A program made the translations under genes and the position numbers. Positions 42,580 to 47,910 of a stretch of 64,000 nucleotides of DNA are shown piece after piece. Each line of letters begins with the position of its first letter. Within the stretch, counting starts at the first letter, position 1. Under the pieces are notes generated by a model. It saw only the letters and a program-made list of their open reading frames with translations, did not search any database and had not been told where the DNA came from. Source of the DNA: Allomuricauda sp. (lineage in GTDB: Bacteria > Bacteroidota > Bacteroidia > Flavobacteriales > Flavobacteriaceae); assembly GCF_028280385.1 (NCBI RefSeq), contig NZ_JANQLX010000009.1:62001-126000 (forward strand). Direction: 5' to 3'.

Positions 42580-43383
42580 ATGGCTGGATTGAGCACCCCA
42601 AAGCAAAAGTTATCCGCACTTGTCATTACCTACAATGAAATAGGATACATCGAACGTTGTATCGAATCGGTTTCTTTCGCCGATGAAATTCTCGTGGTGG
42701 ATTCCTACAGCACGGATGGCACCTATGAATACCTTCTAAACCATCCAAAGGTGAAGGTAATCCAACATCCCTTTAAGGATTTTACGGCCCAAAAATCCTA
42801 TGCCCTTAAACAAGCTACCAACGATTGGATCTTGTTTTTGGACGCAGATGAGGTTGTAGGTGAAAAACTCCAGAACGAAATTGTTTCCACGATAAACGAT
42901 CCCAAAGCCTGTGAGGCCTATTGGTTCTACAGGAAATTTATGTTCCAGGATACCCAACTGAACTTTAGCGGTTGGCAAACCGATAAAAATCACCGCCTTT
43001 TTAGGAAAAGTAAGGCCAAGTTTACCGATAAAAAACTGGTTCACGAAACCTTGGAAGTGGACGGGAAATCCTGTATCCTAAGAGAAAGGCTGACGCATTA
43101 CTGCTACAAAAATTACGAAGATTACAAGGGCAAAATGCTTCGATACGGGCAGCTAAAGGCCAAAGAGGCGTTTTACAAGGAGAAACAGTTCAATTATTTG
43201 TTGCTGGTTTTTAGGCCCCTTTGGAAATTCTTCAACCATTATGTAATCCGTCTTGGATTTTTGGATGGCAAAAAGGGCGTCATAATTTCCTATCTGAACG
43301 CTTTGAGCGTTTTGGAGCGCTACCGGGAACTAAAAAGGCTGGAAAAGAAAAACGAGCTTACCTATTATTTGGTAATGCCATAG
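42580..43383 (+). CDS. GT2 glycosyltransferase (WaaE/KdtX-like)
   Basis: A 267-residue glycosyltransferase close to LPS-core WaaE/KdtX proteins. It opens with KLSALVITYNEIGYIERCIESVSFADEIL, has VDSYSTDGT and the metal motif LFLDADEVV, and a FNHYVIRLGFLDGKKG block in the C-terminal third that is standard for this group. Cytosolic face of the inner membrane. Its 3' end overlaps the convergent GT2 gene by 19 bp. Probably adds a sugar to the LPS core or another surface glycan next to the nonulosonate genes. Confidence 0.9.
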   Translation: MAGLSTPKQKLSALVITYNEIGYIERCIESVSFADEILVVDSYSTDGTYEYLLNHPKVKVIQHPFKDFTAQKSYALKQATNDWILFLDADEVVGEKLQNEIVSTINDPKACEAYWFYRKFMFQDTQLNFSGWQTDKNHRLFRKSKAKFTDKKLVHETLEVDGKSCILRERLTHYCYKNYEDYKGKMLRYGQLKAKEAFYKEKQFNYLLLVFRPLWKFFNHYVIRLGFLDGKKGVIISYLNALSVLERYRELKRLEKKNELTYYLVMP

Positions 43384-44177
43384 GGTGTCCACACACTTTT
43401 GTTGAGCTTTACATCCCGTCGTATACCCCTATTTACAGCAAGGGCTTCTTCATCTATATAACTGCGGTCATGATCTAAATGAATACAAACCGCACTATAT
43501 CTTAACTGCTTTGGTTTTATACCGTTGTTGACCAAACGCTCTCCCATTTCCCGATCTTCGCCGCCATACTTCATGCGTTCGTCAAAACCGTTCACATTTA
43601 AGATATCATTTTTCCAACCTGAGGAATTATGACCGTTCCAACTGGCATTGGTAGGGGTGATGGTATTCAAGAGCTTGGATATAAATCCACTGGCCGTGAG
43701 CTTATTGTTCTTAAAGCTCTTGGGAATTCCTTTTTCCTTCAACCAATTGATATTAAAGCAATTTTGTTGCTCAATATCCTCTTTGGTGATGGCCTGGGAT
43801 ATATTCATGGGCAACATATAGTAGCCGCCGGAAATAAACATTGTCGGTTCTTTGTTGATATAATGAACCTCCACAAAATCCTCCCTGGGAATGCAGTCCC
43901 CGTCGGTCATGATAATATAATCCGTCTCGGTAGCGGTTATGGCCTTGTTGAGAATTTTGCACTTTTCAAAACCTTGATCTTCCTGCCATACATGTTTTAT
44001 GGGAAAATGAAGTTGGTCTTTTAAGACATCAATCCGCGATTTGGTCTCCTGGGTGGAGCCATCATCGGCAATCACCACCTCAAAATCCTTATAGGTCTGA
44101 TAGTTAAAGCCCCAAAGGACTTTCTCCAGCCAGTCCGGTTTATTATATGTGCTAATGACTACGCTTACCGATGGCAT
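43365..44177 (-). CDS. GT2 glycosyltransferase with galactosyltransferase-type C-terminus
   Basis: A 270-residue enzyme. N-terminal GT2 signature PSVSVVISTYNKPDWLEKVL, IADDGST and DGDCIPREDF (metal motif), and a C-terminal Glyco_transf_7C block GFDERMKYGGEDREMGERL. I chose the ATG at 44175-44177 because the family starts there; an upstream extension of 20 residues has no similarity. Divergent from the sialyltransferase-like gene (73-bp gap with a -7 element), so it may share regulation with the nonulosonate genes. Confidence 0.88.
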   Translation of the reverse strand: MPSVSVVISTYNKPDWLEKVLWGFNYQTYKDFEVVIADDGSTQETKSRIDVLKDQLHFPIKHVWQEDQGFEKCKILNKAITATETDYIIMTDGDCIPREDFVEVHYINKEPTMFISGGYYMLPMNISQAITKEDIEQQNCFNINWLKEKGIPKSFKNNKLTASGFISKLLNTITPTNASWNGHNSSGWKNDILNVNGFDERMKYGGEDREMGERLVNNGIKPKQLRYSAVCIHLDHDRSYIDEEALAVNRGIRRDVKLNKSVWTPYGITK

Positions 44178-44194
44178 TAATTGCAGTTTTTCAG

Positions 44195-44202
44195 TACTTT
44201 TG
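44195..44202 (+). promoter_or_regulatory. Candidate -7 element TACTTTTG for the nonulosonate gene cluster
   Basis: Exact TAnnTTTG match, 48 bp before the ATG at 44251. A TTG lies only 11 bp upstream, which is short of the usual spacing. Confidence 0.45.
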
Positions 44203-44250
44203 CAAATGTAGTTTTTTGAGGTATATCTCCAATACAATTCCCTTTATTAT

Positions 44251-45294
44251 ATGAATCGAACCTACGTAGGGTCCACCATATACCACATTTACCTCTCCCT
44301 AATCCATATCAGTAAAAATTCTGGGTACAAGCCAGATGACAGGGGCAACAATTTGCTGTTTTTGGTAGAGAGCACACCTATGATAGAATCCTTGATACCC
44401 AACCTGAAGAAACATTTTTTCAGGGATGTGCATGTTATTTCGGAACGAAAGGACCATGTTAGGGATTTGGGAAAATTCAATTATTCGCTGCGCAGAAGGG
44501 CCAAACTACCACCTTATCTGGAAGAAAAACATCCGGAATTGCTCCAAGAAAAGGGGTTTATCCAAAATTCCCAACTATATCTTTGCGATACCGATTCTTC
44601 CAAAAGCTATTTTCTGTACGAATTTGGGCGGAACAACATTGAAATGATAGAGGATGGGGCAAGAACCTACCGTCAACGACATTCCACATTTGAACAGTTG
44701 ATGAAGACCTACATCACAAAAACTCCCTTGGGAGGCGGGTTTGACAAGGAAGTCAAGACCATTCATGCACAGTTTCCGGGCAAATTGCCTAAAGGCATCC
44801 AATCCAAGGCTGTGGAGTTGAACATTAAAAAGGAAGTGGCCAAATTCCCCGAAACCCTTAAAAAGGAAATATTCAATCTGTTTATTGGCGACAACACCAT
44901 TGATATTCCCAAGCATAACACGGTCTTGATCCTGACCCAACCTATATCCGAGGACAAAGTGGTGAAAAATGAAGCGGTGAAAATTGAGATCTACAGGGAC
45001 CTTATATCCAAAATTCCAAAGAACGCCAAGGTTATCTTGAAGACACACCCCAGGGAAATCACCAAATATGAAGAACACTTTCCCGACATTACCGTTTTGC
45101 CCGCACTTTTTCCCATTGAGATTTTGGGCTTAAAAAGTGGGTTTCATTTTGAAAAAGGCTATACCTTATTCTCCACTGCACTGTCCAATCTGGAGATTGT
45201 GAAGCAACGGTTTTTTCTGGGTAAGGATTATTTGGATAAATTTACCGCCAGTGCAACCAGGGACTTGATCAAAAACATGGAAACCCCTACCTAA
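44251..45294 (+). CDS. Putative sialyltransferase (polysialyltransferase/GT52-like)
   Basis: A 347-residue protein without membrane helices. It carries the motifs shared by several bacterial sialyltransferase families: an acidic-acidic-Gly motif EDG at 134-136 (MIEDGARTYR), an HP motif at 266-267 (LKTHPRE) and a Ser/Thr pair near 308-309 (LFSTALSN). The GT-B-like fold is expected. It probably moves a CMP-activated nonulosonic acid to a surface glycan or lipooligosaccharide. The next two genes supply CMP-activation and synthesis of that sugar. Assignment rests on motifs plus context; the acceptor is unknown. Confidence 0.72.
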   Translation: MNRTYVGSTIYHIYLSLIHISKNSGYKPDDRGNNLLFLVESTPMIESLIPNLKKHFFRDVHVISERKDHVRDLGKFNYSLRRRAKLPPYLEEKHPELLQEKGFIQNSQLYLCDTDSSKSYFLYEFGRNNIEMIEDGARTYRQRHSTFEQLMKTYITKTPLGGGFDKEVKTIHAQFPGKLPKGIQSKAVELNIKKEVAKFPETLKKEIFNLFIGDNTIDIPKHNTVLILTQPISEDKVVKNEAVKIEIYRDLISKIPKNAKVILKTHPREITKYEEHFPDITVLPALFPIEILGLKSGFHFEKGYTLFSTALSNLEIVKQRFFLGKDYLDKFTASATRDLIKNMETPT

Positions 45295-45304
45295 AAACAA
45301 CACA

Positions 45305-46471
45305 ATGGGCAAAAAGAGCATAGGTTTTATCCCGTTACGAAAAAATTCAAAGGGAATTCCGGGCAAAAACAAAAAAAAGCTACTGGGCCGGCCATTGTTT
45401 TCATGGGTGCTTACAGAAGCCATATTTTCCAAACTGGATGAGGTTTATGTGTTCAGTGATGACCAAGAAATCATAGATTATATCGGCAAAAACTACGCAT
45501 GGACCAAGAAGGTAAAGACCCTACAACGATCTTCGGAAAATGCATCTGACACCGCATCCACGGAAGCAGCCATGTTGGAATTCTCGGAAATGATCCAGCA
45601 CGATTACGAAGTGTTTTGTTTGCTTCAAGCCACGTCCCCACTCACCCAAAAGGAACATATAGATCAAGCGCTATCAAAACTTGAACAGGAAAACCATGAT
45701 TCCGTTCTTAGTGTTGTAAGAACACATCGGTTTATCTGGTCGGAAGATGGCAAAAGCGTCAACTATGACCATACCAAAAGACCACGCAGACAGGATTTTG
45801 AGGGTCTTTTGATGGAAAATGGTGCCGTGTACGCCACCAATAAGTCTTCTCTCCAAGAATCCAACAACAGATTAAGCGGTAACATTGGGCTTATTGAAAT
45901 GCCTGAGGACGGTTTGGTGGAAATAGATTCTGAAACTGATTGGCAGATTGTTGAACAACTTTTGGTTGCCAAATTTCAATCCCAAAAATCTGCCCAAAAA
46001 CTCTCGCATTTGGTCTTGGATGTGGACGGAGTGTTTACGGATGGCAGGGTGGTTTATGATAAAAACGGCGAGTTTTCCAAAACATTTGACATGAGGGATG
46101 GTATGGGGCTGGAAATTCTTAGACAACACAATATGAACGTAGTGGTCATGACTTCCGAAGACTCGGAAATTGTGGCCCAACGAATGAAAAAACTAAAAAT
46201 CGAGGATGTATTTCTGGGCATCAAGGACAAATATTCCTTCCTGGAAAACCTGCTTTTGGAGCGTAATCTAAGTCCAAATGAAGTTGCCTACATTGGGGAC
46301 GATGTAAACGATATGGCCAATATGCTGCGGGTCGGCTGGTCATTTTGCCCATCAAATGCAACAAATCCCATTAAAAACATAGCAGATATCGTACTCAACA
46401 GGCCTTCCGCCCAAGGCGCCATACGAGAAGCTTGCGAATTCATTATGCAATACAATAGAAGATTTCAATGA
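45305..46471 (+). CDS. CMP-nonulosonate synthetase fused to a HAD phosphatase
   Basis: A 388-residue fusion. N-terminal domain (about 1-225): NeuA-type cytidylyltransferase with IPLRKNSKGIPGKNKK (CTP-binding loop), LLQATSPL and ENGAVYATN. C-terminal domain (about 232-388): KdsC-like C0-type HAD with nucleophile D239 and acid/base D241 in LDVDGVFTDG, K307 and the metal motif GDDVND at 331-336, so it looks catalytically intact. The fusion matches the domain order of vertebrate CMP-sialate synthetase, whose HAD part is not known for phosphatase activity. It suggests that the sugar is made as a 9-phosphate, dephosphorylated and activated by one protein. Confidence 0.88.
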   Translation: MGKKSIGFIPLRKNSKGIPGKNKKKLLGRPLFSWVLTEAIFSKLDEVYVFSDDQEIIDYIGKNYAWTKKVKTLQRSSENASDTASTEAAMLEFSEMIQHDYEVFCLLQATSPLTQKEHIDQALSKLEQENHDSVLSVVRTHRFIWSEDGKSVNYDHTKRPRRQDFEGLLMENGAVYATNKSSLQESNNRLSGNIGLIEMPEDGLVEIDSETDWQIVEQLLVAKFQSQKSAQKLSHLVLDVDGVFTDGRVVYDKNGEFSKTFDMRDGMGLEILRQHNMNVVVMTSEDSEIVAQRMKKLKIEDVFLGIKDKYSFLENLLLERNLSPNEVAYIGDDVNDMANMLRVGWSFCPSNATNPIKNIADIVLNRPSAQGAIREACEFIMQYNRRFQ

Positions 46472-47337
46472 CTTTCAAAGAACCCTATATCATAGCAGAA
46501 ATTGGCTGTAACCATAAAGGCGATATGAAAATCGCCAAGGAGATGATCTATATGTCCAAAATTTTTGGGAATGCCAACGCCGTCAAATTCCAAAAAAGGA
46601 ACAACAAGGAACTGCTTACCGAAAAGCAATACAATGAACCCCATCCCAACCCAGTAAACTCTTATGGCAGCACCTATGGCGAGCATCGGGAGTTTTTGGA
46701 GTTTGATGTGGACCAACACCGGGAATTGAAAGCATATTGCGAAGAAGTGGGTATTACCTACTCCACTTCGGTATGGGAAACCACATCTGCCAAGGAAATA
46801 GCATCCCTAAACCCGGAGTTCATCAAAATTCCTTCTGCCTGCAACAACAATTATGAAATGTTGGGATGGTTATGCGAAAACTACGACGGAGAGTTGCACG
46901 TTTCCACTGGAATGACCACCAAAGATGAAATTTCGGAACTGATCAACTTCTTTGCCGAAAAAGGTAGGGCCAAGGATTTGGTGGTATACAATTGTACCTC
47001 CGGTTACCCTGTCCCTTTTCAAGATATCTGTCTTCTAGACATCCTAAAACTCAAGGAAAAATATGGAGATAAGGTAAAAAGCATCGGTTTTTCCGGCCAT
47101 CACCTAGGTATCGCCGTGGATGTGGCAGCATATACTTTGGGAGCCCATATCATAGAAAGACATTTTACCTTGGACAGGACCTGGAAAGGCACGGACCATG
47201 CGGCATCCTTGGAACCAATGGGGCTCAGAAAACTTAGCAGGGACCTACGGGCCACATACGCAGCGCTCACCTACAAATCCAAGGACATTTTGGACATTGA
47301 GAGCGTACAAAGGGATAAGCTGAAATACAAAAAGTAA
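46468..47337 (+). CDS. NeuB-family nonulosonic acid (9-phosphate) synthase without SAF domain
   Basis: A 289-residue PEP-dependent synthase with the NeuB barrel motifs: YIIAEIGCNHKGD, VKFQKRNN, HVSTGMTT, IGFSGHH and GAHIIERHFTLDRTWKGTDHA. The family's usual C-terminal SAF (antifreeze-like) domain is missing: the chain stops shortly after the barrel. Its ATG overlaps the fused NeuA-phosphatase stop by 4 bp, so translation is coupled. Substrate (ManNAc-6-P, Man-6-P or another) cannot be read from the sequence; no NeuC/NeuS-type epimerase is nearby, which makes a mannose-6-phosphate/KDN route attractive. Confidence 0.87.
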   Translation: MTFKEPYIIAEIGCNHKGDMKIAKEMIYMSKIFGNANAVKFQKRNNKELLTEKQYNEPHPNPVNSYGSTYGEHREFLEFDVDQHRELKAYCEEVGITYSTSVWETTSAKEIASLNPEFIKIPSACNNNYEMLGWLCENYDGELHVSTGMTTKDEISELINFFAEKGRAKDLVVYNCTSGYPVPFQDICLLDILKLKEKYGDKVKSIGFSGHHLGIAVDVAAYTLGAHIIERHFTLDRTWKGTDHAASLEPMGLRKLSRDLRATYAALTYKSKDILDIESVQRDKLKYKK

Positions 47338-47910
47338 GTGAAGTACGACTTTACCTCAGAAATCAACAAGGCATTTGATACTTTGTCAGCTGGCGGACTG
47401 ATCCTCTATCCGACAGATACCGTTTGGGGCATTGGTTGCGATGCCACCAATCCAGAGGCCGTAAAAAAGGTCTACACCCTAAAAAACCGGGAAGACAGTA
47501 AGGCCCTTATATGTTTGGTGGCAAACCAGGCCATGCTGGAGCGCCATGTCAAAAACATTCCCGATGTGGCGTATGATATTATGGATTTTGCCACAAAACC
47601 CACCACCATTGTCTTTGACAATCCCCTTGGTATAGCGCCCAATCTTGTGGCCGAGGACAATACCATTGCCATCCGTGTGGCATCGGACAAGTTCTGCCAA
47701 TATCTCATCAACAACTTTGGAAAGCCCATTGTTTCCACATCCGCCAACATTTCCGGGTTTCCAACCCCAAAAAGCTTTAACGGGATTTCCCCGGAAATTT
47801 TAAAAGGAGTGGACTATGTGGTAAATTTGCCGGACGAAAACAAAGACCCAAAGCCATCATCCATCATTAAATTGAGCGCGGATGGACAGGTCAAGGTAAT
47901 CCGGGAGTAG
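47338..47910 (+). CDS. L-threonylcarbamoyladenylate synthase (Sua5/YrdC family)
   Basis: A 190-residue enzyme that makes threonylcarbamoyl-AMP for the t6A37 modification of tRNA. The N-terminal [18 protein letters not shown] and KALICLVA blocks and SANISG loop match YrdC/Sua5; the short length means that there is no C-terminal Sua5 domain. It starts with GTG directly after the synthase stop (TAAGTG), so it depends on the nonulosonate genes for translation. A housekeeping tRNA gene in this position is unusual. Confidence 0.9.

What the first reader, a model, noticed from the sequence alone, without database searches (positions are those of the whole stretch)
44251..47337. Compact three-gene nonulosonic acid module with a predicted 9-phosphate route
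A sialyltransferase-like protein, a CMP-synthetase fused to an intact C0-type HAD phosphatase, and a SAF-less NeuB-type synthase are translationally packed (10-bp gap, 4-bp overlap). The phosphatase implies a 9-phosphate intermediate as in the eukaryotic route, and no UDP-GlcNAc epimerase is present, so KDN from mannose 6-phosphate and PEP is a plausible product. Surface KDN or sialic acid in a marine flavobacterium with a single three-gene cassette would be notable.
Basis: partly seen in the sequence, partly recalled or inferred. Interest (0 to 1): 0.72.

Follow-up and report, generated by a model that had tools for sequence, protein, structure and literature searches.

The report
SAF-less KDN-making cassette in marine flavobacterium
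A flavobacterium, probably marine, carries three tightly packed genes, kept in the same place in related genera, that are predicted to turn mannose 6-phosphate into the sialic acid KDN and likely to attach it to the cell surface, by a stripped-down version of a route known from a gut bacterium.

Summary
In detail: a GT52-type transferase, a CMP-sugar synthetase fused to a KdsC-type phosphatase, and a 289-aa NeuB synthase without SAF domain. (1) In 199 Flavobacteriaceae genomes the hydrolysing epimerase NeuC occurs in 59 of 72 with other NeuB synthases only, in 0 of 92 without NeuB, but in 2 of 35 with this synthase clade; N-acylglucosamine epimerase is not enriched either (3 of 35). (2) The phosphatase carries the Glu/Lys pair that was mutated in crystal structures of Bacteroides KDN-9-phosphate phosphatase (41 of 41 clade A domains); the genome's own KdsC does not. 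(3) The synthase shares a basic signature with KDN-cluster synthases that NeuC-linked ones lack. (4) The transferase has the sialyltransferase motifs and fold. The cassette is widespread: the trio stands in one row in 25 of 28 near loci, with related trios in other phyla. It differs from the known KDN route by the missing SAF cap and the fused enzyme. Against: the phosphatase misses the curated KDN cut-off, and this genome has an N-acylglucosamine epimerase. No product was measured.

The parts
44251..45294 (+). GT52-type glycosyltransferase, predicted KDN (sialyl) transferase
44650..44658 (+). (D/E)DG motif E134-D135-G136
   Evidence: E134 and G136 invariant, D135 at least 90% in 54 sequences; motif name recalled
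45046..45051 (+). HP motif H266-P267
   Evidence: invariant in 54 sequences; motif name recalled
45172..45177 (+). S(S/T) motif S308-T309
   Evidence: invariant in 54 sequences; motif name recalled
45305..46471 (+). bifunctional protein: CMP-nonulosonate synthetase (NeuA) fused to KdsC-type HAD phosphatase
   Evidence: PF02348 residues 7-182; TIGR01670 residues 236-384
45323..45850 (+). CMP-synthetase domain
   Evidence: best solved relatives PpNeuA 9t4z and CMP-Neu5Ac synthetase 1qwj
46010..46456 (+). C0-type HAD phosphatase domain, D239 and D241 in place
   Evidence: the name C0 is recalled
46157..46192 (+). stretch with E285, R293, K296, equivalent to E56, R64, K67 of Bacteroides KDN-9-P phosphatase
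   Evidence: alignment; 41 of 41 clade A domains; 4hgq shows A at 56, 4hgr A at 56 and 67
46468..47337 (+). SAF-less NeuB-type synthase, predicted KDN-9-phosphate synthase
   Evidence: PF03102, no SAF; predicted barrel, mean pLDDT 95.4
46594..46599 (+). K43-R44, part of the signature shared with KDN-cluster synthases and absent from 20 NeuC-linked ones
46774..46776 (+). W103, residue of the short synthases at the site of Phe112 of N. meningitidis NeuB
47338..47910 (+). sua5 (threonylcarbamoyl-AMP synthase), directly abutting; possible operon neighbour, not part of the pathway
   Evidence: TIGR00057 144.3 over cut-off 123.2
43365..44237 (-). divergent GT2 glycosyltransferase, conserved neighbour; probable true start near 44177
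   Evidence: PF00535; beside the trio in 25 of 25 near loci
42580..43383 (+). GT2 glycosyltransferase, conserved neighbour (LPS-core-like, recalled)
   Evidence: PF00535; in 25 of 25 near loci

Best explanation
The three genes encode a SAF-less NeuB-type synthase, a CMP-sugar synthetase fused to a HAD phosphatase, and a GT52-type transferase, which together would condense mannose 6-phosphate with phosphoenolpyruvate to KDN-9-phosphate, likely dephosphorylate it to KDN, likely activate it to CMP-KDN, and are predicted to transfer it to a surface glycan, probably the lipopolysaccharide core. Shown: the genes, domains, catalytic residues, motifs, synteny and distribution. Inferred: substrate, product, phosphatase specificity, donor and acceptor. 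Without the SAF cap there is no equivalent of Arg314, the residue that places the N-acetyl group of ManNAc in the meningococcal enzyme, which fits a substrate without an N-acetyl group.
For: NeuC (TIGR03568 over cut-off) in 59 of 72 genomes with other NeuB only, 0 of 92 without NeuB, 2 of 35 with this clade, both of which also hold a second NeuB (Fisher p about 1e-14, not corrected for kinship). No NeuC homologue at E 1e-10 in the fetched stretches of 42 clade A loci or 37 GT52 loci. No NanE in this genome; mannose-6-phosphate isomerase model over cut-off, its two pieces summed. Phosphatase pair E/K in 41 of 41 clade A domains, 17 of 17 clade B domains, E in 17 of 18 and K in 18 of 18 KDN-cluster domains, not in the genome's own KdsC (G/G) nor in the four KdsC-like solved chains printed; 37 of 37 in GT52-linked copies. 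4hgq and 4hgr show Ala at exactly these sites. The clade A fusion L120 passes the KDN-9-P phosphatase cut-off: 190.4 against 180. Synthase signature: K43, R44, H73, R74 and K284 in 0 of 20 NeuC-linked synthases, K240 and R258 in 1 of 20 each; in the 18 KDN-cluster synthases all seven in 18, except K43 in 16. GT52 motifs in 54 sequences; fold. Arg314: PMC6795526, passages.
Against: The window's phosphatase scores 134.8 against the KDN-9-P phosphatase cut-off of 180. The KDN-cluster synthases are long, 344-355 aa, so SAF loss is not itself a mark of KDN. This genome encodes an N-acyl-D-glucosamine 2-epimerase (629.5 bits, cut-off 600) that could give ManNAc. 2 of 42 clade A loci (L136, L190) gave no HAD in the fetched stretch, and in 5 of 42 the synthetase-phosphatase fusion was not found. 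The E/K pair also occurs in clade B, whose product is unknown. The best solved relative of the CMP domain has no sugar stated in the listing (9t4z). Lipopolysaccharide as acceptor rests on recalled family knowledge. No chemistry was measured.
Confidence: 0.66

Rival explanations
1. The cassette makes Neu5Ac by the animal-like route: N-acylglucosamine epimerase gives ManNAc, a kinase gives ManNAc-6-P, then Neu5Ac-9-P, Neu5Ac and CMP-Neu5Ac.
For: NF052547 over cut-off in this genome; the human synthase uses both sugars (recalled; reference title seen).
Against: That epimerase is over cut-off in 3 of 35 clade A genomes against 13 of 164 others (Fisher p 1.0) and 30 of 35 have neither it nor NeuC; it lies on another contig; SAF Arg314 is missing; no NanE. 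A ManNAc kinase was not searched for.
Confidence: 0.15
2. The synthase accepts another phosphorylated hexose and makes a different, possibly undescribed, nonulosonate 9-phosphate.
For: Clade A differs from all 18 KDN-cluster synthases at W103 (C there), A124 (R there) and G210 (D there); long stem branch in the quick tree.
Against: The same residues are shared by all 18 clade B synthases and may reflect SAF loss; the HAD pair matches the KDN-9-P type.
Confidence: 0.12
3. The HAD domain is a vestigial oligomerisation platform, as in vertebrate CMP-sialic acid synthetase, and the route is unphosphorylated.
For: Same domain order; the mouse C-domain showed no phosphatase activity (PMC8636478, passages).
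Against: Both Asp present in all 40 clade A domains aligned beside the window's and basic signature in the synthase.
Confidence: 0.05
4. The GT52 protein transfers some other sugar (some GT52 members are not sialyltransferases, recalled) and the KDN goes elsewhere.
For: Two GT52 loci (L213, L216) have no NeuA or NeuB beside them; 27 of 42 clade A loci hold another candidate transferase one to three genes from the synthase.
Against: In 37 of 79 GT52 loci a clade A synthase, NeuA and HAD lie in the same stretch, in several gene orders; sialyltransferase motifs and fold.
Confidence: 0.2

Closest known systems
KDN pathway of Bacteroides thetaiotaomicron (BT1714 synthase; UniProt Q8A712 phosphatase, Q8A711, Q8A710; PMC6200933, passages)
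   Same: NeuB-type synthase, HAD with E56/R64/K67, CMP synthetase; no amination step; basic synthase signature shared with such clusters
   Different: SAF domain absent; phosphatase and synthetase fused; GT52 beside them; phosphatase under the curated cut-off
Prymnesium parvum Kdn pathway (PMC6200933, passages)
   Same: Man-6-P plus PEP to Kdn-9-P, then CMP-Kdn
   Different: eukaryote, no phosphatase homologue found there; separate enzymes
Serratia marcescens KL1/KL2 neuA-neuB KDN capsule (PMC9000132, passages)
   Same: KDN made with two named genes, neuA and neuB
   Different: its NeuB carries an extra isomerase/epimerase domain, the word phosphatase does not occur in the text; capsule
Vertebrate CMP-sialic acid synthetase (CMAS)
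   Same: N-terminal synthetase plus C-terminal KdsC-like domain; the C-domain is said to occur in vertebrates and some bacteria
   Different: vertebrate C-domain reported inactive as phosphatase (PMC8636478, passages); here both Asp are intact
GT52 lipooligosaccharide sialyltransferase NST of Neisseria (2yk7)
   Same: Pfam family, motifs, GT-B fold
   Different: 14% identity in the Foldseek alignment; predicted donor CMP-KDN instead of CMP-Neu5Ac
Leptospira borgpetersenii synthetase 6ncs
   Different: 28% identity; activity not known to me; whether the chain is the whole protein was not checked

Membership tests
B. thetaiotaomicron-type KDN-9-P pathway | Synthase of the NeuB family with active-site residues | tested here: met
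   PF03102; E11, K40, Q42, N64, K120, Y180, H211, E230, H232, D243 kept; Asn184 is S178, Thr110 S101, Phe112 W103, Glu134 C125
B. thetaiotaomicron-type KDN-9-P pathway | SAF domain on the synthase (18 of 18 KDN-cluster synthases are long; 14 of them were among the 62 scanned for it) | tested here: not met
   289 aa, no PF08666
B. thetaiotaomicron-type KDN-9-P pathway | Phosphatase over the NF058599 equivalog cut-off | tested here: not met
   134.8 against 180; own KdsC 95.4, clade A L120 190.4
B. thetaiotaomicron-type KDN-9-P pathway | Phosphatase pair E56/K67 | tested here: met
   E285/K296
B. thetaiotaomicron-type KDN-9-P pathway | Activity on Man-6-P, PEP and KDN-9-P | not testable with these tools
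   needs enzyme assay
GT52 sialyltransferase | Pfam PF07922 over cut-off | tested here: met
   77.9 against 26.1
GT52 sialyltransferase | (D/E)DG, HP and S(S/T) motifs (recalled) | tested here: met
GT52 sialyltransferase | GT-B fold nearest to sialyltransferases | tested here: met
GT52 sialyltransferase | Transfer from a CMP-nonulosonate | not testable with these tools
   needs assay
Neu5Ac synthase NeuB (TIGR03569) | Equivalog cut-off 399.65 | tested here: not met
   200.9
Neu5Ac pathway with NeuC | Hydrolysing UDP-GlcNAc epimerase in the genome | tested here: not met
   best 97.8 and 89.8 against 235.9
Pseudaminic acid synthase PseI / PseF | Equivalog cut-offs 340.25 / 205.7 | tested here: not met
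   141.5 / 90.1
Vertebrate-type CMAS | Synthetase plus KdsC-like C-domain | tested here: met
   3ewi matches the HAD

The most novel reading that the evidence does not exclude
This is a second, streamlined lineage of the KDN pathway: losing the SAF cap removed the N-acetyl clamp and locked the synthase to mannose 6-phosphate, a fused enzyme does dephosphorylation and CMP activation, and a dedicated GT52 branch is a KDN transferase. It has spread through Flavobacteriaceae and beyond, making KDN, not Neu5Ac, a common surface nonulosonate of these bacteria.
Probability: 0.5. Interest if true: 0.66.

Novelty: new variant of a known kind. Interest (0 to 1): 0.52.

Why it matters
If true, a large group of flavobacteria, many of them marine, makes KDN by default, which bears on where KDN in marine and algal samples comes from. 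The cassette would give a compact one-operon kit for CMP-KDN and KDN transfer. It would also make testable whether the antifreeze-like (SAF) domain is what makes sialic acid synthases prefer N-acetylated substrates, and it shows a version with intact catalytic residues of the phosphatase domain that vertebrate CMP-sialic acid synthetase carries in inactive form.

Tried and rejected
SAF loss alone as a mark of KDN: rejected, because KDN-cluster synthases are full length. The curated KDN-9-P phosphatase cut-off as decisive: rejected both ways, since the window misses it and a clade A relative passes it. First idea that the genome has no ManNAc source: weakened by the N-acylglucosamine epimerase over cut-off, then tested by distribution. 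GT52 as part of every such cluster: rejected; the window's GT52 has a match in 7 of 199 family genomes, four of them (56-100% identity) with clade A, three (29-36%) without. In one search the two N-acylglucosamine-epimerase queries were wrong ORFs (neighbouring genes), so that part is void; of the four 'NeuC' query ORFs one was a NeuB, the other three overlap NeuC places and stand. The tree is the quick one; the careful search was not finished. Comparing the GT52 sequence with PDB chains gave no relative, 3 chance-like rows at E 0.034 or worse. Dropped before the group counts: the 571-aa synthase of G119 (L125, L076; 43% identity, its HAD over the KDN cut-off), which fits no group by length. 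NeuC-linked synthases in the signature count are 20 fetched places out of the 63 NeuC places over cut-off listed. KDN in flavobacteria: in searches of the held library no listed title or abstract start reports it (two of these searches returned nothing; lists are capped); I read passages only of PMC6200933, PMC6795526, PMC9000132, PMC8636478 and PMC4052302, the last naming pseudaminic acid in Cellulophaga fucicola and no sialic acid term; most subscription journals are not held. The papers on the Bacteroides KDN route and on the human synthase (PMC4425688, PMC1479744) were not held and are known to me by recall and citation.
Full report
What is there. Three genes on the + strand are packed as described: 44251-45294, 45305-46471 and 46468-47337, with a 10-bp gap and a 4-bp overlap. 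They encode a GT52-family transferase (PF07922), a CMP-sugar synthetase fused to a KdsC-type HAD phosphatase, and a NeuB-family synthase of 289 aa that lacks the C-terminal SAF domain. The sua5 frame starts at the base after the synthase stop codon. A GT2 gene runs divergently upstream. The organism is close to Flagellimonas (synthase 92% identical to a F. flava protein).

How common it is. In 199 Flavobacteriaceae genomes the search with the window's synthase gave 107 genomes with a match; 35 of them hold a relative of at least 62% identity and the next best hit is 43%. I call this clade A. It also occurs in 7 genomes of other families among 395 Bacteroidia searched. A search of named genomes with a GT52 alignment kept 79 loci. 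Of the 28 nearest (56-77% identity), 25 hold GT52, NeuA-HAD and the clade A synthase in one row. All 25 have dapD and both GT2 genes upstream; downstream, sua5 is found in 22 and cca in 24 of the 25 (the contig of L205 ends there). The three exceptions are Robiginitalea aurantiaca (L213) and Maribacter vaceletii (L216), where no NeuA or NeuB lies beside the GT52, and L221, whose contig ends. A further 12 loci have a more distant GT52 with a clade A synthase, NeuA and HAD in the fetched stretch, in other gene orders, including Clostridium caldaquaticum (L262), a Roseburia MAG (L273) and a Neomarinimicrobiota MAG (L236), which suggests horizontal transfer. So 37 of 79 loci hold the set.

Is the sugar aminated? 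Canonical bacterial sialic acid synthesis uses the hydrolysing epimerase NeuC. NeuC over the curated cut-off is in 61 of 199 genomes: 59 of the 72 with other NeuB synthases only, 0 of the 92 without any NeuB match, and 2 of the 35 with clade A; both of those (G010, G031) also carry a second NeuB of another kind. The p value (about 1e-14) takes no account of kinship. Searches with three NeuC proteins found none in the fetched stretches of 42 clade A loci or 37 GT52 loci; WecB-type epimerases turned up in 3 of the 42 and an FnlC-like one in 1. The window's own genome has no NanE. Its two UDP-GlcNAc 2-epimerase-family genes pass the non-hydrolysing WecB model and miss the NeuC model; they sit in one cluster with genes that I read, from recall, as WecC-like and FnlA/FnlB-like. 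Against the reading, the genome does encode an N-acyl-D-glucosamine 2-epimerase over cut-off. That gene is over cut-off in 3 of 35 clade A genomes and 13 of 164 others, that is, not associated, and 30 of 35 clade A genomes have neither it nor NeuC. A mannose-6-phosphate isomerase gene is present.

Is there a 9-phosphate? The HAD domain keeps its Asp pair. Aligned to the Bacteroides enzyme (3e81), its E285, R293 and K296 fall on E56, R64 and K67. Two PDB chains of that enzyme, 4hgq and 4hgr, show Ala at 56 and at 56 plus 67; that 3e81 is the KDN-9-phosphate phosphatase and that these residues set its specificity is recalled, the papers were not held. The pair is present in 41 of 41 clade A domains (40 from 42 fetched loci plus the window; L136 and L190 gave none), 17 of 17 clade B domains (18 loci), and E in 17 of 18 and K in 18 of 18 of the KDN-cluster set. 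It is absent from the genome's own KdsC (G/G) and from the four KdsC-like solved chains printed. The window's domain scores 134.8 for the KDN-9-P phosphatase model, its own KdsC 95.4, the cut-off is 180, and the clade A fusion L120 reaches 190.4. The fusion itself was found in 37 of 42 clade A loci.

Verdict. The best account is a KDN route: Man-6-P plus PEP to KDN-9-P, to KDN, to CMP-KDN, to a surface glycan. The LPS core as acceptor is inference from the GT52 family and the two neighbouring GT2 genes. The kind is known from Bacteroides thetaiotaomicron and Prymnesium (PMC6200933, passages), and KDN capsules are known in Serratia (PMC9000132, passages). Synthetases with a HAD-like C-domain are known from vertebrates and some bacteria (PMC8636478, passages). 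What I did not find described are the SAF-less synthase clade, the fused enzyme with an intact KDN-type phosphatase site, the GT52 partner and the breadth of the set (searches named under Tried and rejected). Nothing here measured a product.

Noticed in passing
L107:6491-7885 (-) and relatives in 27 of 42 clade A loci: A GT-B-like protein of about 464 aa (weak PF04464) lies one to three genes from the clade A synthase; candidate second family of KDN transferase.
   Followed up: partly
L077-L096: Clade B: another short synthase group (288-299 aa; one ORF start gives 333) with a HAD that carries the E/K pair, in several Bacteroidia families; product unknown.
   Followed up: partly
L216 (Maribacter vaceletii), L213 (Robiginitalea aurantiaca): GT52 present but no NeuA or NeuB beside it; in L216 sua5 and cca follow directly, as if the two genes were lost.
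   Followed up: no
L262, L273, L236: Clade A synthase with NeuA, HAD and GT52 in Clostridium, a Roseburia MAG and a Neomarinimicrobiota MAG, 60-71% identical synthase: likely horizontal transfer.
   Followed up: no
window 44177-44237: The GT2 gene on the - strand probably starts at the later ATG near 44177 (a relative in L097 begins there), leaving about 73 bp for two divergent promoters.
   Followed up: no
window 47337-47338: sua5, a housekeeping tRNA-modification gene, abuts the synthase and may depend on the same transcript.
   Followed up: no
L101, L104, L187, L188: MBOAT and DUF1574-like proteins side by side near clade A synthases; possible O-acylation of the nonulosonate.
   Followed up: no
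L125 (G119): A 571-aa protein whose NeuB part is 43% identical to the window's, near a HAD over the KDN-9-P phosphatase cut-off; a possible further fusion architecture.
   Followed up: no
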